A DNA stretch of 16,979 bases from Rubritepida sp. (lineage in GTDB: Bacteria > Pseudomonadota > Alphaproteobacteria > Acetobacterales > Acetobacteraceae). Each line of letters opens with the position of its first letter. Position 1 is the first letter of the stretch. Shown here one piece after another: positions 6,582 to 16,968 of this stretch. The translations under genes were made by a program, and so were the position numbers. The stretch is taken from the NCBI GenBank assembly GCA_022843345.1, contig JALHNW010000008.1:1-16979 (forward strand), given 5' to 3'. The notes beneath the pieces were generated by a model, which saw nothing but the letters and a program-made list of their open reading frames with translations, had not been told where the DNA came from and did no database searches.

Positions 6582-6634
6582 CCTGATCCCTGGCGGCCTG
6601 CTGGCTGCAATGGACTGGCGTGCATGGGATCAGG
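6582..6634 (+). promoter_or_regulatory. Inverted repeat overlapping the AAA+ ribosome-binding site
   Basis: CCTGATCCC at 6582-6590 is the exact reverse complement of GGGATCAGG at 6626-6634. The right arm runs into the Shine-Dalgarno-like CAGGGAG at 6631-6637, eight bases before the ATG at 6645. If the leader RNA folds, the site would be partly hidden. The 35-base spacer makes this a modest-stability structure. Confidence 0.4.
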
Positions 6635-6644
6635 GAGACAGGCG

Positions 6645-8150
6645 ATGGCCCGCAGCGGCGACGTGGTGACCTTGCGCTCGCAGGGAGGCGACCAAGATAC
6701 GAACGACTTCGATCTCGGGTCCGACGATAAGCGGCACCGTGATGCCCGCATGGCCGTGCAACCTGCTGTCGTGGCCGCCCAGGCCATGCTGCGCGATGCC
6801 CTGGGCAATCGGCTGTCCGAAGAGGCGGCGCGCACGCGCTTCCTGATCCTCGCCGTCCCCGACACGCACTGGACCGGCCCGGTGATCCACGCCTTCCGCC
6901 TCCACGCGAAAGGCGGCCGTCCTGCGGAACGGCTTGGCCTGGTCGGCGTGGGACCGCTCGACAGGAATGACTGGGTGCACATCCCCGCCGATGGTGCCCG
7001 CGCCGGCATCCTGCGCGACGAGGCGGGCACGGTCCTGCTCGCGGGCGGGCAGCTTGTCGTGACCACGTCCAGCCCGGATGCCCTGCCTGCGCCCGTGCGC
7101 GCGGCGGCTGACCGTGTCGCCGTCCTGGAGCGGATGGACTGGGCCATCCTGCGGCATGTCGCGGAGGCCGTGTGCGGCCCGTGCGATGGTTGGCCGGTGG
7201 AGCCGCGCCCGCCGCAGGACGTGCTGGATGCCATTGGTCCCGGGACGCTCGCGCTCTCCGTGCGCCCCGGTGATGATGCGCGGTCCTATGCGGGGCGGGT
7301 GCTGCGGATCGCTGCGGCGGCGGATCCGGCCAGCCGCCCGCCCCCGGGTCCCGGGACGATTCCTGTCCGCAGGGCTGCGCCTCATGGCCTGGCCCGCGTG
7401 CCGGGACTCGGGCCTGCGCTGGATTGGGCGCGGGCGCTGGCCGCGGATCTTCGGGAGTATCGGGCGGGCCGAATTGCCTGGGCGGACGTGGATCGTGGCG
7501 CGGTCCTGGTCGGTCCCCCGGGAACGGGCAAGACGTCTTTCGCACGCGCGCTCGCCGAGGAGTGTGGCGTGCCCCTGGTGGCCGCGTCCTATGGAGAATG
7601 GCAGGCGGCCGGGCATCAGGGGGAGATGATCAAGGCCATGCGCGCCTCCTTCGCTGCCGCGCGCGCCCAGGCTCCGTGCCTGTTGTTCATCGATGAGCTG
7701 GACAGCTTCCCGGTGCGTGGCCAGCAGGGGCAGAACCATGAGTCCTACGTGCGGCAGGTCGTCAACGCGCTCCTTGCCGAGCTAGACGGGCTGGAGGGCC
7801 GCGAGGGCGTGGTCGTGGTGGCCGCGTGCAATGAGGTGGACGGCGTTGACCCGGCCATCCTGCGCGCGGGGCGGCTGGACCGCGTGATCTCTGTCGGGCT
7901 TCCCGATGTCCGGGGACGGCAGGAGATCCTACGCGTCCACCTGGGCGATGATCTTCCCGGGGCAGACCTGATGCAGGTCGCCACGCTGGCGGATGGGATG
8001 TCCGGTGCGGAGATCGAGAAGGTGGTGCGGGAAGCCAGGCGGGCGGCGCGAGTCGATGGGCGGCGGATGCTGATGGGGGATCTGGTGGTGGCCGTGGCGG
8101 AAGCCTTGGACCTGGAACTGATGCCCTGCACCCCCTCGGCTTCGCACTGA
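6645..8150 (+). CDS. AAA+ ATPase with FtsH-like ATPase core, no peptidase domain
   Basis: A 501-residue protein. Residues 1 to about 255 form an N-terminal region I cannot assign. The AAA+ module follows, with Walker A GPPGTGKT at 290-297, Walker B LLFIDELDS with Asp350 and Glu351, the pore-loop-like SYGEWQAAG region, sensor-1 Asn396 in VAACNEVD, and the second-region-of-homology arginines in ILRAGRLDR. A helical lid with MSGAEIEKVVREARR comes near residue 450. The core resembles FtsH/classical AAA unfoldases, but the chain ends without the M41 HEXXH peptidase, so it probably remodels proteins or nucleoprotein complexes as a ring. AGGGAG sits before the ATG at 6645; an in-frame ATG at 6624 lacks one. 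G+C is visibly lower than in the housekeeping genes. Confidence 0.88.
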   Translation: MARSGDVVTLRSQGGDQDTNDFDLGSDDKRHRDARMAVQPAVVAAQAMLRDALGNRLSEEAARTRFLILAVPDTHWTGPVIHAFRLHAKGGRPAERLGLVGVGPLDRNDWVHIPADGARAGILRDEAGTVLLAGGQLVVTTSSPDALPAPVRAAADRVAVLERMDWAILRHVAEAVCGPCDGWPVEPRPPQDVLDAIGPGTLALSVRPGDDARSYAGRVLRIAAAADPASRPPPGPGTIPVRRAAPHGLARVPGLGPALDWARALAADLREYRAGRIAWADVDRGAVLVGPPGTGKTSFARALAEECGVPLVAASYGEWQAAGHQGEMIKAMRASFAAARAQAPCLLFIDELDSFPVRGQQGQNHESYVRQVVNALLAELDGLEGREGVVVVAACNEVDGVDPAILRAGRLDRVISVGLPDVRGRQEILRVHLGDDLPGADLMQVATLADGMSGAEIEKVVREARRAARVDGRRMLMGDLVVAVAEALDLELMPCTPSASH

Positions 8151-8337
8151 CCCGCAACACCATCAGCGCAACCAGCAGATGCGACCGAATCTGACGGATG
8201 CAGAGGCCGTCCCCCCTTGCCACCCACCTCTCCGGGCACTCTGACGGGCTTGATCTTCAACTCCGGGCTGTAGCTGGATCGCATCCGCACCCTCGCCCTC
8301 TATGCCAGAAGCACGTGGCCTACAGGAGTTCGCTGGA

Positions 8338-9300
8338 ATGAGCCGTTGCCCCATCTGCCGCAGGAAGGACTGCATCGAACGGGGGAACCGGCACCTGCTG
8401 GCGTGCTTCGACCTCACGTTTCCCGGCCAGGGTGATCTTGGTGCCGGCCTCGGATCGGGAGCCCTTTATGACCACCCAAACCTTTCGGATCTTCTCGCGG
8501 CCATCCAACGCGACCGACTGGCCGCCTGGGGCAGTGGAGGTCAGGCCGCACCCGCCAGCGGATGGATCAGGAATCATCCTCACCTCCGCGCCTACTTCGC
8601 CAGCCTGGGCACCGCAGGGTTCACTCCCAGGCCAGGGGAAGGCCCGGACGAAGCCCTGTCGCGCCTCCGGACCTCGACTGCTGACCATGCCTCCAGCGTC
8701 CGCGAACTCCTGGATGGCCTTTGCCGCGATGCCGGATGGGAGGAGTTGGTCTCCCGCGACGAGGACAGCGCCTTCCTGGCCTCATCCGCCTACCAGCTGT
8801 GGTGGGACCGGCATCCGGCAGCGGTGGCCAAGACCCTTCAGGAGACCATCGCGGATCTGCCGCTCAAGGCCGCGCGCACCCCGGCCAGGCGCAGACAGCG
8901 CACAGGTCAAGCCGATGCGGCCACCCCAAGCACGAGCACCTCTGGCGACACCTCCCTTCCGACACCTCCGGTCAGCCCTGCTTGTGATGCCCCATGCACC
9001 CCCGTCTGGCTGGGCACCGAGCCGCCCGGGGCACGCGAGGCGTTCGATCACCTGAGGGTCGCGGCGAGTGACCCTACCATCCTCAGGACCGAGTTCAACG
9101 CCCTCGCGGGCCGCTTCTTCCGGGAGGGCTTCGCTCCCGATCAATGGGTCACCCCGAGCGGCGAGGCGCACTCGCATGCCGATGTGCGCCTCGCCATCAG
9201 CCGCTATGGATGGGGACAGGTCCGCGGCCTGCTGAACGATGGCACGCCCATCCCGCGGGAACCCTCGGAACTCGACGAGGAAGAAGAAGAGGACGAATAG
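8338..9300 (+). CDS. Unknown protein with N-terminal Cys-rich finger and acidic tail
   Basis: A 320-residue protein of no family known to me. It opens with a probable zinc knuckle: Cys4, Cys7, Cys12 and Cys23, with His19 as another possible ligand. Residues of about 30-190 look globular and helical, with many Trp. A Pro/Ser/Thr/Arg-rich linker (about 190-230) follows. A second small domain holds FDHLRVAASDPTIL and SRYGWGQVRGLLNDG. The last 11 residues are SELDEEEEEDE. The ATG at 8338 has AGGAG nine bases upstream; an in-frame ATG at 8302 has no site. It lies 187 bases after the AAA+ gene on the same strand, so the two may form a module. DNA or RNA binding by the finger and a mimic or docking role for the tail are inferences. 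Confidence 0.75.
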   Translation: MSRCPICRRKDCIERGNRHLLACFDLTFPGQGDLGAGLGSGALYDHPNLSDLLAAIQRDRLAAWGSGGQAAPASGWIRNHPHLRAYFASLGTAGFTPRPGEGPDEALSRLRTSTADHASSVRELLDGLCRDAGWEELVSRDEDSAFLASSAYQLWWDRHPAAVAKTLQETIADLPLKAARTPARRRQRTGQADAATPSTSTSGDTSLPTPPVSPACDAPCTPVWLGTEPPGAREAFDHLRVAASDPTILRTEFNALAGRFFREGFAPDQWVTPSGEAHSHADVRLAISRYGWGQVRGLLNDGTPIPREPSELDEEEEEDE

Positions 9301-9447: not shown

Positions 9448-11283
9448 ATGAGTGGAACTGCCCTGTCCTCCTTGATCTGGTCCGCCGCCGAGCTGCTGCG
9501 CGGTGCCTACCAGCCGCATGAGTATGGCCAGGCCATCCTCCCCTTCACCGTGCTGCGCCGCCTGGACTGCGTCCTGGCCCCCACCAAGCAGGCCGTCCTG
9601 GACGAGAAGACGGCCCGTGAGGCGGCGGGCGTGAACCCGGAGCCGTTCATGCTCCGCGCCGCGCGCCTGTCCTTCGTCAACACTTCCACCTACGACCTGC
9701 CCAAGCTGATGGGCGACCAGGACAACATCCAGGCCAACCTCATGGCCTATGTCCGAGCCTTCTCTCCCGTGGTGCGCGACATCTTCGACCGCTTCCGCTT
9801 CGCCGAGGAGGTGGAGCGCCTCGCGGCCAAGGATCTCCTCTACAAGCTGACGGAAAAGTTCGCCCACCTCGACCTGCACCCGCGCACGGTCAGCAACGAG
9901 CAGATGGGCCACGCCTTCGAGGAGCTGATCCGCCGCTTCGCCGAGACCTCCAACCAGACGGCGGCCCAGCAATACACCCCGCGCGATGCCATCGAGTTGA
10001 TGGTGAACCTGCTGTTCATCGAGGATGACGACGTCCTCACCCCCGGCAACCCCGTGGTGCGCCGCCTCTACGACCCCACGGCGGGCACGGGCGGCATGCT
10101 CAGCCTGGCGGAGGAGTTCGTCCACCGCACCAACCCCGCCGCCCGCTTCACCATGGCGGGCCAGGAGCTGAACGACCGCGCCTACGCCATCTGCAAGGCG
10201 GACATGCTCATCAAGGGCCAGGACATCTCGGCCATCCTGCCGGGCGACACGCTCAAGGCCGATGGCCATGCGGGCAGCCGCTTCGACTACATGATGTCTA
10301 ACCCGCCCTACGGCTACGACTGGGACGACGCGAAGGCCGTGGTGACGCGCGAGCACCGTGAGCAGGGCCATGCCGGGCGCTTCGGCCCTGGCCTGCCGCC
10401 TACCTCGGATGGGCAGATGCTGTTCCTGCTCCACCTCGTCTCCAAGATGGTGCCCGCGCAGGAGGGCGGCAGCCGCATCGGCATCGTCCTGTCCGGCTCG
10501 CCCCTGTTCACGGGCGGCGCGGGGTCCGGGTCGTCGGAGATCCGGAGGCACCTGATCGAGAACGACCTGGTCGAGGCCATCGTCGCCCTGCCCACGGACA
10601 TGTTCTTCAACACGGGCATCGCCACCTACATCTGGCTGCTCACGAACCGCAAGCCCGGGCACCGGAAGGGCTTCATCCAGCTCATCGACGCATCGGCGCA
10701 GAGCGAGAAGATGCGCCGCTCCCTGGGCTTCAAGCGCAAGCGGCTGGGCGAGGTCCACATCAGGCGGGTGACGGAACTCTTCGGCGGCTTCGTGGAAGCC
10801 CGCCTGGCCACCCTGACCGATGCCCAGGGCAAGGTGACGGAGCAGGTGCTGACCGGCGATGCGCCGGAGCCCGCCGCGCCCCCGGGCGGCAAGCTGCGGG
10901 TGGTCCCGATCTCGCGCATCTTCCGCAACGAGGCGTTCGGCTACCGCACGATCACCGTGGAGCGGCCCCAGCGGGACGGGCAGGGCAACCCCGTCCTGGG
11001 GCAGCGCGGCAAGGCCAAGGGCCAGCCCGTGCCCGACAGCGCCCTGCGCGACACGGAGAACGTGCCCCTGTCCGAGGAGATCGGCGACTACATGGCGCGC
11101 GAGGTGCTGCCCCACGCCCCCGATGCCTGGGTGGACGAGGCCAAGACCAAGCTGGGCTACGAGATTCCCTTCAACCGCTTCTTCTACACCTTCGAGCCGC
11201 CGCGCCCGCTGGCCGAGATCGATGCCGACCTGAAGCGGACCACGGACCGCATCCGCGCCATGCTGGATGGGCTGGCGGCATGA
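9448..11283 (+). CDS. hsdM: Type I restriction-modification DNA methyltransferase subunit
   Basis: A 611-residue N6-adenine methyltransferase. It has the helical HsdM N-domain (LSSLIWSAAELLRGAY, then ILPFTVLRRLDCVL), the AdoMet-binding motif I DPTAGTGGM at 209-217 and the catalytic motif IV NPPY at 285-288, followed by PTDMFFNTGIATYIWLL. A C-terminal part with KTKLGYEIPFNRFFYTFEPPRPL would contact the specificity subunit. With HsdS it methylates adenine in a bipartite target; with HsdR it forms the restriction complex. Length and motifs look complete. There is no clear Shine-Dalgarno before the ATG at 9448. It overlaps hsdS by ATGA at 11280. Confidence 0.96.
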   Translation: MSGTALSSLIWSAAELLRGAYQPHEYGQAILPFTVLRRLDCVLAPTKQAVLDEKTAREAAGVNPEPFMLRAARLSFVNTSTYDLPKLMGDQDNIQANLMAYVRAFSPVVRDIFDRFRFAEEVERLAAKDLLYKLTEKFAHLDLHPRTVSNEQMGHAFEELIRRFAETSNQTAAQQYTPRDAIELMVNLLFIEDDDVLTPGNPVVRRLYDPTAGTGGMLSLAEEFVHRTNPAARFTMAGQELNDRAYAICKADMLIKGQDISAILPGDTLKADGHAGSRFDYMMSNPPYGYDWDDAKAVVTREHREQGHAGRFGPGLPPTSDGQMLFLLHLVSKMVPAQEGGSRIGIVLSGSPLFTGGAGSGSSEIRRHLIENDLVEAIVALPTDMFFNTGIATYIWLLTNRKPGHRKGFIQLIDASAQSEKMRRSLGFKRKRLGEVHIRRVTELFGGFVEARLATLTDAQGKVTEQVLTGDAPEPAAPPGGKLRVVPISRIFRNEAFGYRTITVERPQRDGQGNPVLGQRGKAKGQPVPDSALRDTENVPLSEEIGDYMAREVLPHAPDAWVDEAKTKLGYEIPFNRFFYTFEPPRPLAEIDADLKRTTDRIRAMLDGLAA

Positions 11284-12605
11284 GCTTTCCACCTTACCCC
11301 GCCTACAAGGACAGCGGCGTGCCCTGGCTCGGTGATGTGCCGGCGCATTGGGATGTGCTCGCGCTCAAGCGTCTCTTCACCACTGTCGGCGAGAAGGCGA
11401 TCGGTCGCGAGTTTCCCGTGGCCTTGGAGCACATTGAGAGCGGCACAGGCCGGCTCATTGAAGGTTCCGGGGAGTTCGAGGGGGATGGGGTCGCGTTCCG
11501 CGGCGGCGACATCCTCTACGGCAAGCTACGTCCTTATCTCGCGAAGACGTGGCTGGCAGACCGGTCAGGGGAGGCAGTCGGGGATGTTCATGTCATGCGC
11601 CCTACCGCAGACGTCGTGGGGGCGTTCTACCGGGATCTGCTGTTGACCCCTTCGGTGGTGTCCGTCCTGAACGGGTCCACCTATGGAGCCAAGATGCCCC
11701 GGGTAAGCTGGGACTTCCTTGGCATGATGCCGGTTGTTCGTCCGCCCGAGGATGAGCAACGGGACATCGTCGTATTCGTGGATGCCGAGACTGCCAAGCT
11801 CGACGCGGTGGTGGCGGAGCAGGAAGCCCTCCTGGGTCTGCTGGATGAGAAGCGCCAAGCCGCTATCTCCCACGTTGTCTTCAACGGGTTGGCACCCGAT
11901 GTCCGCAAGAAGGCCAGCGGTGTGTCCTGGGTGGGGAGCATCCCTGACCACTGGGATGTTGTGCCGTTCCGCCAGCTTGCCTCGAAGGGACGTAAGACGT
12001 TCGTTGATGGCGACTGGATCGAGTCTCCCTACATCACCACGACGGGCGTGCGGCTGCTCCAGACCGGCAACGTCGGCGTGGGCCGATTCAAGGAGCAAGG
12101 CTTTCGATACATCACGGAGGAAACCTTCACCTCACTCGGATGCACGGAGGTATGTCCAGGCGACCTGCTGGTGTGCCGTCTTGCGGGGCCGGTTGGCCGA
12201 GCCTGCATCGCGCCCGATCTCGACGTGAAGATGATCACCTCGGTGGACGTGGCGATCCTAAAACCTGCACCGGACGTGGATGTCCGCTACTTCGTCCATC
12301 TGTTGTCATCGGCACAGTATCTGGGCTTCATCGAAGGCGAGTGCAGGGGCGGCACCCGTGACCGGATCAGCCGTAGCTTCCTCGGCGCGCTGCGCATGCC
12401 GAAGCCCCCACTGATCGAGCAGCAGGCCATCGTTGCGGCGCTGGATGCCGCCCTCGCGGACATGGAAGCCCTCGCCACCGAAGCCCGCGCCAACATCGCC
12501 CTGCTCCGCGAGCGCCGCGCCGCCCTGATCTCCGCCGCCGTCACGGGCAAGATCGACGTGCGCCATGCCGCATCCGCGTCCCGGGACGCGAGGGCGGCGG
12601 CATGA
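11280..12605 (+). CDS. hsdS: Type I restriction-modification specificity subunit
   Basis: A 441-residue protein with the standard two-half layout. Each half opens with a matching segment: SGVPWLGDVPAHWDV at about 12-26 and SGVSWVGSIPDHWDV at about 213-227. The two target-recognition domains are followed by helical spacers, EQRDIVVFVDAETAKLDAVV from about 159 and EQQAIVAALDAALADMEALA from about 380, each ending in a RRAA/KRQAAIS-like stretch. The DNA in the recognition domains is visibly less GC-rich than hsdM and hsdR, as expected for domains exchanged by recombination. The target sequence cannot be predicted by eye. It is joined to hsdM and hsdR by ATGA overlaps and appears intact. Confidence 0.95.
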   Translation: MSFPPYPAYKDSGVPWLGDVPAHWDVLALKRLFTTVGEKAIGREFPVALEHIESGTGRLIEGSGEFEGDGVAFRGGDILYGKLRPYLAKTWLADRSGEAVGDVHVMRPTADVVGAFYRDLLLTPSVVSVLNGSTYGAKMPRVSWDFLGMMPVVRPPEDEQRDIVVFVDAETAKLDAVVAEQEALLGLLDEKRQAAISHVVFNGLAPDVRKKASGVSWVGSIPDHWDVVPFRQLASKGRKTFVDGDWIESPYITTTGVRLLQTGNVGVGRFKEQGFRYITEETFTSLGCTEVCPGDLLVCRLAGPVGRACIAPDLDVKMITSVDVAILKPAPDVDVRYFVHLLSSAQYLGFIEGECRGGTRDRISRSFLGALRMPKPPLIEQQAIVAALDAALADMEALATEARANIALLRERRAALISAAVTGKIDVRHAASASRDARAAA

Positions 12606-15600
12606 CCGGGGTCCACAAGGAGATCGCCCTGGAAGATGCGATCTGCGCCCACCTCGCCGCCCATGGCTGGCTCCACGACCCCGCGGCATCGCAGCGCTGG
12701 GACCGGGAACTCGCCTTGTTCCCGGAGGATCTGGCGGCCTGGGTCGCGGCCACCCAGCCCCAGGCCTGGGGCGTGCTGGAGAAGTCCCACGGGGCCAAGG
12801 CCATCGAGGTGCTGGCGCGGCGCGTGCGCGAGGCGGCGGACAGGCAGGGCATCCCCGCCCTGCTGCGCGATGGGCTGGACGTGGTGGGCCTCAAGGCCCG
12901 GCTGGTCCTCGCCCGCTTCAAGCCCGCCCTGGCGATGAACGAGGCGCTGGAGCGCGACTATCGGGCCAACCGCCTGCGGGTGCTGCGCCAGGTCCGGCAC
13001 AGCGTGAACAACGGCGACTGCATCGACCTCGTCCTCACCCTGAACGGCCTGCCCATCGCCACGGCGGAGCTGAAGTCGGCCTATACCCAGTCGGTGGAGG
13101 ACGCGGTGGACCAGTATCGGCTGGACCGCCTGCCCCACCCCAAGGGCGGCAAGGCCGAACCGCTGCTCGCCCTGCCGGGCGGCGCGCCGGTGCATTTCGC
13201 CGTGTCCAATGCCGAGGTGCGGATGTGCACCCGCCTGAACGGGCCGGGCAGCGTCTTCCTTCCCTTCAACAAGGGCAATGCGGGCGGCGCGGGCAATCCG
13301 CCCAACCCCCATGGCGCGCCCACGGCCTATCTGTGGGAGGAGGTGTGGCAGCGCGATTCCCTGCTGGAGATCGTGGGGCGCTACATCATCCCCGTGCGCG
13401 ATGACCATCGCCGCCTCAAGGGCTGGATCTTCCCCCGCTACCACCAGCTCGACGCGACGCGCGCCCTGGTGCGCGCCATCCGGGCCGAGGGTGCGGGCGG
13501 GCGCTACCTGGTGCAGCACAGCGCGGGGTCCGGCAAGACCAACTCCATCGCCTGGACCGCGCATTTCCTGGCCGACCTGCACGACCCCGCGGGCACCACC
13601 AAGGTGTTCGACACCGTGCTGGTGGTGTCCGACCGCACCGTGCTGGACAAGCAGCTGCGCGAGGCCATCGAGGCGTTCGAGCGCACCCAGGGCGTGGTGT
13701 CCGTGGTGACGGGCGAGGGATCGGCGAAGAGCTAGGAACTGGCCCAGGCCCTGGGGGCGGGCAAGAAGATCGTGGTGTGCACGATCCAGACCTTCCCCTT
13801 CGCGCTGGAGAAGGTGCGCGAACTCGCGGACACCCAGGGCAAGCGCTTCGCGGTGATCGCGGACGAGGCGCATTCCTCGCAGTCCGGCCGCGCGGCCTCG
13901 GAACTCAAGGCGGTGCTGTCGGCTGCCGAGGCGGCGGAGATGGAGGATGGCGGGGAGATCGCCGCCGAGGACATCCTGGCCGCGCGCATGGCCGCGCGGG
14001 CGGCGGAGGGGGAGCACATCTCCTTCGTCGCCTTCACGGCCACGCCCAAGGCGAAGACGCTGGAGCTGTTCGGCACCCTGCCCGACCCCGCCCGCCCCGC
14101 GGGCAAGGACAACCTGCCCCGGGCCTTCCACGTCTATTCCATGCGCCAGGCCATCGAGGAGGGCTTCATCCTCGACGTGCTGCGCAACTACACCTCCTAC
14201 CGGATGGCCTTCCGCCTGACCCATGACGGGACGGAGGTGGACGGCAACGAGGTGGAGGCGGGCGAGGCGCAGAAGCGCATCATGGGCTGGGTGCGCCTGC
14301 ACCCGCACAACATCGCCGCGCGCGTGCAGATCGTGGTGGAGCACTTCCGGGAGAACGTCGCCCACCTGCTCGGCGGCCAGGCCAAGGCGATGGTGGTGAC
14401 GGCCAGCCGCAAGGAGGCCGTGCGCTGGACCAGGGCGATGCGCGCCTACATCGCCAAGCGGAACTATCCTGTCGGCGTGCTGGTGGCCTTCTCGGGCGAG
14501 GTGGAGGATGCGGAGAGCGGTCCCGGGACGTTCAGCGAAGGCGGAATGAACGAGGGGCTGAACGGGCGGGATGTCCGCACAGCCTTCGGCACGGACGAGT
14601 ATCGCATCCTGCTGGTCGCCAACAAGTTCCAGACGGGCTTCGACCAACCCCTGCTCTGCGCCATGTACGTGGACAAGCAGCTGGGCGGCATCCAGGCGGT
14701 GCAGACGCTCAGCCGCCTGAACCGCGCCCATCCCGGCAAGGACACGACCTATGTCGTGGACTTCGTGAACGAGGGCGAGGACATCCTGGCCGCCTTCAAG
14801 CAGTATCACGAGACGGCGGAGCTGGCCGACGTCTCCAACCCCAATGCCGTGCTGGACCTGCGGGCCAAGCTGGATGGCACGGGCTGCTATGACACGCAGG
14901 CGGTGGAGATCGTGGCGCTCGCCGCGCTGGGGCCGCACGCGTCCCAGGCCAAGGTGGATGCGGCGATCTGGCCCGTGGCCGATGCCCTGCTCAAGCGGTT
15001 CCGTGCCGCTCGGGACCAGATGGCCGTGCATGCCGAGGGATCGCCTGTGCATGATGCGGCCAAGGCGGAGCAGGCGGTCCTCATCCAGTTCAAGGGCGAC
15101 CTGGGGGCCTATGTCCGGGCCTATGAGTTCCTGGGGCAGATGTTCAACTACGGGCAGACCTACTTCGAATCCCTGGCCGTCTTCGCGCGCCTGCTGCTGC
15201 CGCTGCTGGAGTTCCGGCGGGAGCGGGAGACGGTGGACCTGGCCGGGCTGGCGCTCACCCATCACCGCCTGCGTGACCTGGGCGTGCAGCAGCTGAACCT
15301 GGGCGCGGGCGAGGCGGAGGCGCTGCGCGCGATGACCCAGACCGGGACGGGGCAGCCGCAGGATAAGCACATGATGCGGCTGGCCGAGATCGTGAAGGCC
15401 TTGAACGACCTGTTCGACGGCGAGGTGACCGAGGGGGATGCGGTGACCTACGTGGATCAGGTCATCAAGGGCAAGATGATGGAGAATGAGGCCCTGCGTG
15501 CCCAGGCGCAGGCCAATACCCCCGAGCAGTTCGCCAACTCCCCCGACCTGCGGGACGCGCTGATGACGGCCATCATGGATGCCCTGGACGCGCACCAGGC

Positions 15601-15724
15601 GATGAGCAGCAAGGCGCTTGGGTCCGAAGCGGTGCGCACGCGCATCCTGACCACGCTGCTCGGGCCGGGCGAGCTGTGGCAGAACCTGCGGCAGCCGCCC
15701 CAGGGGCCGGGCATGGCGGCCTGA
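12602..15724 (+). pseudogene. hsdR: Type I restriction endonuclease subunit, interrupted by an in-frame amber codon
   Basis: The reading frame from the ATG at 12602 to the TGA at 15724 encodes one HsdR of about 1,040 codons, normal for the family, but codon 378 (13733-13735) is TAG. Before it lie the PD-(D/E)XK nuclease residues Asp142, Glu156 and Lys158 (TAELKS) and the helicase Walker A motif AGSGKT at 308-313. After it, in the same frame and without lost bases, come ELAQALGAGKK, CTIQTFPFALEK, the DEAH box at 421-424, the TATPKAKTLELFG motif, the VANKFQTGFDQP motif and LSRLNRAHPGKDTTYVVDF. A single substitution explains it. The truncated N-terminal product lacks helicase motifs II-VI. The downstream part has no good start site. 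A sequencing error or amber suppression remain possible. Confidence 0.92.
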
Positions 15725-16002
15725 TGGAACGACGCTGGGCCATCATCTCCATGGACGGCCGCCACACATGGCTGGGCCGGAACTCCGATCCCAGCCAAGC
15801 GGAGATCGCCTCCACCGAGGCGGCCCTGGCCGCCCAGGGCATCCCCGCATGGCTCGCCGTCGTGCAGGGCGATTACTGGTCCACCGCTCCCCTGGAGATC
15901 ATGGCTGTGCGCCCCCTGGCAGGGGCTCAGACATCCTTGTGGGAGGATGCCCAGGCCGCCTTCCTGGCGGCACGGCGGGAGAAGCTGGCCAGCCTGGGCT
16001 GA
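15724..16002 (+). CDS. 92-residue protein coupled to hsdR, unknown function
   Basis: The ATG at 15724 overlaps the hsdR stop by one base (TGATG), so it is probably translated by coupling as the fourth gene of the RM operon. It begins MERRWAIISMDGRHTWLGR, then NSDPSQAEIASTEAALAAQGIPAWLAVVQGDYWS, and a C-terminal helix WEDAQAAFLAARREKL. It looks like a compact alpha/beta protein with no signal peptide, no metal ligands and no DNA-binding motif that I can name. The in-frame frame is open upstream to 15676, inside hsdR, but ATG 15724 is the better start. It ends three bases before the stop of the convergent methyltransferase. No function is assigned. Confidence 0.75.
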   Translation: MERRWAIISMDGRHTWLGRNSDPSQAEIASTEAALAAQGIPAWLAVVQGDYWSTAPLEIMAVRPLAGAQTSLWEDAQAAFLAARREKLASLG

Positions 16003-16005
16003 CGC

Positions 16006-16968
16006 TCACGGCGGCCCCACCCCCCGCACCAGCAGGAGTTCCTGCCTCGCTCGCCGATGGCCGTCCCGGATCCCCAGGGGCTGGACCTGGAATCCATGCT
16101 CCCCGGCCAAGCGGTGGACCTCCGAATCATCCGGGTAGGTCGCCAGGACGCGCCCCCTGACGCGGGCCAGCGCATCCATGACGGCGCGATGGTCCACCTC
16201 ATGGTGGGTGTAGAGGCGGCGGCCCGCCTGGGTGGTACCAATGGTGTAGGGCGGATCCACGAAGAACTTCGCCCGGACCTCGGGGGCGAACTCCCGGATC
16301 ACCTCCATCGCATCGTCCCGGATGGACAGGCGATGCCGCTGCGCGCGGATGGCAAGCAGGCGCTGCACCATGGCCCCGGCACGAAGCGCATCGGCCAGGT
16401 GCCCATCCGGGCGCAGGCCGCCCCCGGCGATGCCGCCCCACCGGAAGCGCCCGGCGAGCAAGGCACGGGCCGCGACCAGCGTCTCCGAGGGATCGCCGTG
16501 GACGCGGCGGAGGAACGCCGCCCACCAGTCGCCCGAGGGCTGCGCCCCCTCCACTTCCTCCAGCAACGCCCGGAAGGCGGCATCCGGGGCGGAGGCGACG
16601 ACCTGCCACAGAGTGCGCAGCCCATCATCGCGCTCCGCGATCACCGCGCGGTCGGCCATGCCCGTGAGGATGGCGCGCACCGAGACGGCGGCGCTCCCCC
16701 CGAACGGCTCCACCAGGCAGGAGGTGGCCCCGAGTTCCCTGACCAGCCGAGAGGCGACCTTGGCCTTGCCGCCGGGATACCGCAGGGGCGTGCACCGCGC
16801 CTGGACGCGCCCACGCGCCCCACCCCCGCGCCGGCCGGGCGCGGGAGGCAGCTTGGGCGGATCATCGTCCCCATCCACGGGCAGGACAGGCTCGGGCCGC
16901 GCCCCCACGCGCGCCCTGCGGCGCTCATGGCTACCCGGCCGCTTGCGGGGCTCGGGGCGCTCCGGCAC
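16006..16968 (-). CDS. D12-class N6-adenine DNA methyltransferase (Dam-like)
   Basis: A leftward frame of 320 residues from a GTG at 16968. It shows the D12/alpha-class order: motif X LRYPGGKAK at 62-70, AdoMet-binding VEPFGGSAAVS at about 86-96, a central target region with RFRWGG, and the catalytic FFVDPPYT with DPPY at 238-241, followed by LYTHHEVDHRAVMDAL. It should methylate adenine in a short sequence. Such genes are common as orphan methylases in prophages and islands. The first 60 residues are Arg/Pro/Gly-rich and unusual, so the true start may be internal (for example the GTG at 16908). The frame is also open to the window edge, so the gene may be longer. It converges on the RM operon. 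Confidence 0.88.
   Translation of the reverse strand: MPERPEPRKRPGSHERRRARVGARPEPVLPVDGDDDPPKLPPAPGRRGGGARGRVQARCTPLRYPGGKAKVASRLVRELGATSCLVEPFGGSAAVSVRAILTGMADRAVIAERDDGLRTLWQVVASAPDAAFRALLEEVEGAQPSGDWWAAFLRRVHGDPSETLVAARALLAGRFRWGGIAGGGLRPDGHLADALRAGAMVQRLLAIRAQRHRLSIRDDAMEVIREFAPEVRAKFFVDPPYTIGTTQAGRRLYTHHEVDHRAVMDALARVRGRVLATYPDDSEVHRLAGEHGFQVQPLGIRDGHRRARQELLLVRGVGPP

What the first reader, a model, noticed from the sequence alone, without database searches (positions are those of the whole stretch)
13733..13735. Amber codon disables hsdR while hsdM and hsdS stay intact
The frame continues without any lost base on both sides of TAG and matches HsdR throughout. The break falls between Walker A and the DEAH box, so no truncated product can translocate DNA. 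The predicted phenotype is methylation without restriction. This could be a recent loss, a silenced but revertible system, an amber-suppressed subunit, or an anti-self-toxicity escape.
Basis: partly seen in the sequence, partly recalled or inferred. Interest (0 to 1): 0.7.

Follow-up and report, generated by a model that had tools for sequence, protein, structure and literature searches.

The report
Recently broken type I restriction gene
A single stop codon cuts the DNA-cutting subunit of an otherwise intact bacterial restriction-modification system, so the cell probably still marks its DNA but no longer cuts foreign DNA; this is an ordinary, recent gene loss of a kind already described in other bacteria.

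Summary
TAG at 13733-13735 interrupts, at codon 378 of 1040, an otherwise open hsdR frame (12602-15724) directly behind uninterrupted hsdM and hsdS. It lies between Walker A (309) and DEAH (421). Both pieces, cut exactly as here, also lie on a 100,470-base contig in the protein collection, so the stop is not private to this assembly, though the sample may be the same. 119 of 119 listed near-full-length homologues carry nine different residues there (predicted proteins cannot hold a stop). There is no decay beyond the TAG: 6 of 390 strongly conserved positions depart, within the 3-13 of twelve intact homologues. TAG acts as a stop elsewhere: in five other coding-like frames the coding signal ends at it. 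No CTA tRNA was found among 29 (84% complete draft). Against my reading: the RF1 gene is itself frame-broken in this draft, which points to assembly errors or, less likely, real RF1 loss. Best reading: a recent nonsense mutation giving the restriction-minus, modification-plus state known from S. aureus RN4220 and Mycoplasma agalactiae. Ordinary.

The parts
9448..11283 (+). hsdM, type I DNA methyltransferase subunit, 611 aa, uninterrupted
   Evidence: Pfam HsdM_N and N6_Mtase; PADLOC MTase_I PDLC03029 E=1.1e-242; DPTAGTGG and NPPY present; the only N6_Mtase match at E <= 0.001 in this incomplete genome
11280..12605 (+). hsdS, specificity subunit, 441 aa, uninterrupted; its start overlaps the hsdM stop (ATGA)
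   Evidence: PADLOC Specificity_I PDLC03105 E=5e-94 over residues 2-432; Pfam Methylase_S just over cut-off, 22.8 against 22 bits; matched in 76 of 85 relative loci, several cut by contig ends
12602..15724 (+). hsdR frame, 1040 codons, interrupted by TAG at codon 378; its start overlaps the hsdS stop (ATGA)
   Evidence: HSDR_N, SWI2_SNF2, T1R_D3-like; TIGR00348 in both pieces; 119 homologues over 900 aa aligned
13733..13735 (+). in-frame TAG (amber) stop
   Evidence: read directly; identical truncated products on a second, longer contig
12602..13735 (+). N-terminal piece, 377 aa: nuclease domain and first part of the motor domain with Walker A
   Evidence: HSDR_N at 119-215, SWI2_SNF2 from 281; P0122 identical, on 2 contigs
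13772..15724 (+). C-terminal open frame after the TAG (650 aa from a GTG): DEAH box and rest of the motor
   Evidence: SWI2_SNF2 and T1R_D3-like in the piece 13736-15721; P0111 identical over 649 aa

Best explanation
A type I restriction-modification operon hsdM-hsdS-hsdR whose hsdR has recently suffered a nonsense mutation at codon 378. Shown: the stop, the uninterrupted neighbours, the same break on a second contig, sense residues at this place in the homologues listed, and no further decay. Inferred: translation ends at the TAG; the 377-aa product keeps the nuclease domain and Walker A but lacks DEAH and the rest of the motor; HsdM and HsdS still form the methyltransferase; the cell methylates its target sequence but does not restrict.
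For: In-frame TAG with an open, homologous frame on both sides. Truncated products identical on a 100,470-base contig besides the 16,979-base window contig; a third window protein is also on 2 contigs, longest 100,470. 119 of 119 homologues aligned have a residue there, of nine types, so the site is not constrained. The best near-full-length homologue listed is 91% identical, so no intact near-identical allele is listed. At positions at least 95% conserved in the others, the broken gene departs at 6 of 390, its intact closest relative at 10 of 390, and twelve intact homologues (that one included) at 3 to 13 of 390-394; identity to the closest relative is 0.92 before and 0.911 after the TAG. 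hsdM and hsdS uninterrupted with expected domains. Of 72 long coding-like frames in own-genome loci, 6 end in TAG; coding signal continues after the hsdR TAG (0.77 per codon, 662 codons open) but not after the other five (0.02 to -0.66).
Against: The second contig may come from the same sample. The RF1 gene is frame-broken in the same draft, which shows that this assembly holds other breaks, probably errors. Raw reads were not available; a mixed population cannot be excluded. That homologues have a sense residue is partly built in, since predicted proteins hold no stops. Methylation and loss of restriction are not measured. Absence of decay would also fit a gene that still works by an unknown route.
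Confidence: 0.84

Rival explanations
1. The TAG is an assembly or consensus error in a fragmented draft genome; the cells have an intact hsdR.
For: The genome is a draft of 465 contigs, 84.1% complete. Its RF1 gene, nearly full length in 18 of the 20 genus relatives searched, changes frame near residue 80, and RF1 is essential in most bacteria (recalled), so at least one error in this draft is likely.
Against: Both truncated products occur unchanged on a 100,470-base contig; no intact near-identical protein is listed; the RF1 break is a frame change, the hsdR break a clean in-frame stop.
Confidence: 0.09
2. TAG is read through, by a suppressor tRNA or because RF1 is really lost, giving some full-length HsdR.
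For: The rest of the frame shows no decay; RF1 is frame-broken in this draft; the genome is incomplete, so a suppressor tRNA could be missed; position 378 tolerates nine residues.
Against: No CTA-anticodon tRNA among 29 tRNA genes; in five other coding-like frames the coding signal ends at TAG; RNA around the stop folds no better than shuffles, z 0.09; no Rfam family over its gathering score in the window; no stop at codon 378 in the 85 loci or the 26 relative loci.
Confidence: 0.04
3. Translation restarts at GTG 13772 or 13775, and the two pieces assemble into a working split HsdR.
For: An open frame with a GTG starts 12 to 13 codons after the TAG; hsdM-hsdS-hsdR are joined by ATGA overlaps, so coupled translation is likely here.
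Against: The split is inside the first motor lobe, between Walker A and DEAH; no clear ribosome-binding site was seen by eye before the GTG. Of 120 N-terminal pieces listed, only the window's own ends at residue 377; P0137 and P0192 end one codon later, on short contigs, and whether by stop or contig end is not known.
Confidence: 0.03

Closest known systems
Staphylococcus aureus RN4220, hsdR with a premature stop (PMC5399793, passages seen)
   Same: A premature stop in hsdR makes the type I system defective.
   Different: Strain used for genetic manipulation, unrelated lineage; here a draft genome with no phenotype measured.
Mycoplasma agalactiae PG2 and four other strains with disrupted hsdR (PMC9465063, passages seen)
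   Different: There a two-base insertion in a poly(A) region that might switch on and off; here an in-frame stop with no repeat or long run nearby.
EcoR124I HsdR (PDB 2w00, 4be7)
   Same: Same kind of subunit; nuclease region, Walker A, DEAH region and later motor region align in order.
   Different: Weak similarity (E about 7e-9 for the whole; single stretches weaker) and intact.

Membership tests
Type I restriction-modification system | hsdM, hsdS and hsdR next to each other | tested here: met
Type I HsdR | N-terminal nuclease domain HSDR_N | tested here: met
   PF04313 E=6.8e-14, residues 119-215
Type I HsdR | Superfamily-2 motor with Walker A and DEAH | tested here: met
   GSGKT 309, DEAH 421; SWI2_SNF2 in both pieces, T1R_D3-like in the second; spread over both sides of the stop
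Type I HsdR | One uninterrupted reading frame | tested here: not met
   TAG at codon 378
Type I HsdR | NCBIfam TIGR00348 curated cut-off 284.55 bits | tested here: inconclusive
   Pieces scanned apart score 50.8 and 88.5 bits; the X-marked whole frame was not scanned
Restriction-minus, modification-plus type I system | Target motif methylated in the genome | not testable with these tools
   needs long-read methylation data
Restriction-minus, modification-plus type I system | No restriction of incoming unmethylated DNA | not testable with these tools
   needs a plating assay
Amber-suppressed or recoded gene | Suppressor tRNA with anticodon CTA | tested here: inconclusive
   none among 29 tRNA genes; genome 84.1% complete and without tRNA-Trp, -Cys, -Tyr, -Ile in the set found
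Amber-suppressed or recoded gene | TAG not used as a terminator elsewhere in the genome | tested here: not met
   five other coding-like frames among 72 end in TAG with the coding signal ending there
Amber-suppressed or recoded gene | Release factor 1 lost | tested here: inconclusive
   RF1 gene present but with a frame change near residue 80 in this draft; error or real loss not separable

The most novel reading that the evidence does not exclude
RF1 is really broken in this bacterium, so UAG terminates poorly and the interrupted hsdR, undecayed after its TAG, is still made by read-through (or by stop-and-restart as a split motor).
Probability: 0.05. Interest if true: 0.6.

Novelty: new member of a known kind. 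Interest (0 to 1): 0.12.

Why it matters
If true it is a clean example of a restriction-modification system caught just after losing its cutting subunit while keeping its methylating half, a presumed first step toward an orphan methyltransferase. It changes no known picture: hsdR loss by stop, frameshift or deletion is documented in the papers cited.

Tried and rejected
Recurrent TAG: one search flagged G230 and G184 with '1 TAG' and G109 with '1 TAA'. In one search the TAGs of G230 and G184 align at query residue 1032, near the end of the query where that alignment stops, so I read them as the normal gene end; G109 shows no stop within its aligned part (2-1033). L073's stop at 1036 I read the same way. 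So no recurrent amber.

Truncated relatives: of 120 N-terminal pieces listed, only the window's own ends at residue 377. P0137 and P0192 end one codon later, on contigs of 5,578 and 2,475 bases; stop or contig end is not known. Ends are otherwise spread over 349 to about 660.

RF1 as proof against recoding: I first took the over-cut-off match as an intact RF1. Checking it showed a frame change, so this argument was dropped and the odds were changed (best reading 0.88 to 0.84, artefact 0.06 to 0.09, read-through 0.03 to 0.04).

A codon-signal survey for frame changes in own loci was too noisy to give an error rate: it also rings on the strand opposite real genes, and in control loci. Its one clear event supported by homology is RF1.

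RNA recoding structure: no excess folding, no Rfam match over gathering score. Plasmids: 676 records match, 10 cover at least 80% of the query, the best being Roseomonas mucosa at 73%; no near-identical copy among the rows and identity bands shown (the tool says that records of the own or a very near genome may be left out).

Full report
What is there. The frame from ATG 12602 to TGA 15722-15724 is a type I HsdR of 1040 codons broken once, by TAG at 13733-13735, codon 378. The other two + strand frames of the same stretch hold 26 and 8 stops, and third-position GC is 0.936 before and 0.929 after the break, so this is one coding frame with one stop. The N-terminal piece carries HSDR_N (119-215) and the start of SWI2_SNF2; the C-terminal piece carries the rest of SWI2_SNF2 and T1R_D3-like. 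Walker A is at 309 and DEAH at 421. hsdM and hsdS upstream are uninterrupted and match their families; HsdM has DPTAGTGG and NPPY (that these are the AdoMet-binding and catalytic motifs is recalled). hsdM/hsdS and hsdS/hsdR overlap by ATGA. In 85 relative loci HsdM was matched in 65 and HsdS in 76, with contig ends accounting for some misses.

Is it real. The window is the whole 16,979-base contig C8 of a 2.51-Mb draft in 465 contigs, 84.1% complete. The 377-aa product that ends at the TAG is listed on 2 contigs, the longest of 100,470 bases (P0122). The 649-aa product after the TAG is listed on 1 contig, of 100,470 bases, in a cluster of 3 member sequences (P0111). The upstream 332-aa gene, called as 320 aa there, is also on 2 contigs, longest 100,470 (P0242). 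So a longer contig most likely carries the same stretch with the same break. Its source is not shown; it may be another assembly of the same sample.

A result against. I checked the RF1 gene (prfA), because RF1 reads UAG (recalled). One search matched it over its cut-off but only from profile position 95. In the search of the genus, 18 of 20 relatives match from about position 6-9 to 356-359; the two without a match are 74% and 57% complete. With the RF1 of G009 as query, residues 2-79 and 82-344 match G000 contig C279 in two different frames of the same strand (seen also). RF1 is essential in most bacteria (recalled), so an assembly error is the likelier cause, and this raises the odds of error in this draft generally. 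Real loss of RF1 would instead make read-through of TAG thinkable.

Does TAG stop here. In own-genome loci held (about 92 kb with the window), 72 long coding-like frames were picked by a codon model trained on window genes: 61 end in TGA, 6 in TAG, 5 in TAA. After the hsdR TAG the coding signal goes on (0.77 per codon, 662 codons open). After the other five TAGs it does not (0.02, -0.47, -0.18, -0.5, -0.66 per codon). Of 11 window frames whose last codon I read, 2 end in TAG. The set of 29 tRNA genes has no CTA anticodon, but lacks tRNA-Trp, -Cys, -Tyr and -Ile, so it is incomplete. RNA around the stop folds no better than shuffles.

Relatives. One search scored 8000 candidates (a cap) and listed 120. 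Leaving out P0111, the window's own C-terminal piece, 119 were aligned and all have a residue at position 378: Q 34, A 28, G 19, K 15, R 15, T 3, S 3, E 1, D 1. These are predicted proteins, so a stop could not show; DNA is the better test. That set favours intact genes. In the family, 52 of 397 genomes match at E <= 1e-150, the own genome included, with 56 matches. Of the 35 matches other than the window's own with identity of 57% or more, I examined 33: 26 loci, 2 and 5. G194 and G093 change frame once inside the gene, G168 several times with two stops, and G342 is cut by its contig start. G113, the second match of G297 and the 19 more distant matches were judged from the table only; G109 (49%) was looked at. 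Broken hsdR genes thus occur here and there in this family, G093 being a fragmented draft where error is possible.

Age. Positions at least 95% conserved among the other 118 homologues were compared. The broken gene departs at 2 of 142 before and 4 of 248 after the TAG; its 91% intact relative P0002 at 4 of 142 and 6 of 248. Twelve intact homologues tested the same way (P0002-P0013, each left out of its own reference set) depart at 3 to 13 in all. Identity to P0002 is 0.92 before and 0.911 after the TAG. There is no sign of decay, so the loss is recent on this scale. For the closest relative only protein was held, so synonymous and non-synonymous change were not compared.

Mechanism. The 377-aa product keeps the nuclease region but not a complete motor. 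Type I enzymes cut only after ATP-driven translocation (recalled for EcoKI and EcoR124I), so restriction should be lost. HsdM with HsdS suffices for methylation; [quoted passage not shown] agalactiae with disrupted hsdR (passages seen). The predicted state is restriction-minus, modification-plus. No other N6_Mtase match was found in this incomplete genome.

Known precedents. RN4220 has a premature stop in hsdR (PMC5399793, passages seen). M. agalactiae PG2 and four other strains have hsdR disrupted by a two-base insertion. In group A Streptococcus, six of ten previously transformed strains carried a spontaneous hsdR, S or M mutation (PMC8084154, parts of the abstract and passages seen). The finding is a further case of a known kind.

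Host. No call names the genus.

Noticed in passing
L140 (G000 contig C279), about 853-859, - strand: The RF1 (prfA) gene changes frame near residue 80 in this draft, while 18 of 20 genus relatives match nearly full length. Probably an assembly error; if real, a striking loss.
   Followed up: partly
6624-8150 (+) and 8302-9300 (+): An AAA ATPase resembling IetA (PADLOC PDLC02196 E=2.9e-27) is followed by a 332-aa protein with no match in Pfam, PADLOC or NCBIfam; only 3 of 7995 candidates matched it, its own copy included. A possible small defence pair with an unknown partner.
   Followed up: partly
G194 contig C7, 275169-276593 and about 278277-281398: In G194 a related AAA ATPase (41%) lies about 1.7 kb from an hsdR homologue that is itself frame-broken, so the neighbourhood may recur.
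   Followed up: no
16006-16968 (-): A D12-class adenine methyltransferase, best PADLOC match PD-Lambda-5_B (E=7.4e-22), stands convergent to the operon.
   Followed up: no
15724-16002 (+): A 92-aa frame overlaps the hsdR stop; no family match and no match in 85 relative loci.
   Followed up: partly
11280-12605 (+): hsdS has a lower third-position GC (0.78) than hsdM and hsdR (0.93-0.94), which fits exchange of recognition domains by horizontal transfer.
   Followed up: no
L171 (G168): An hsdR homologue in a one-contig genome is decayed with several frame changes and two stops: a later stage of the same kind of loss.
   Followed up: partly
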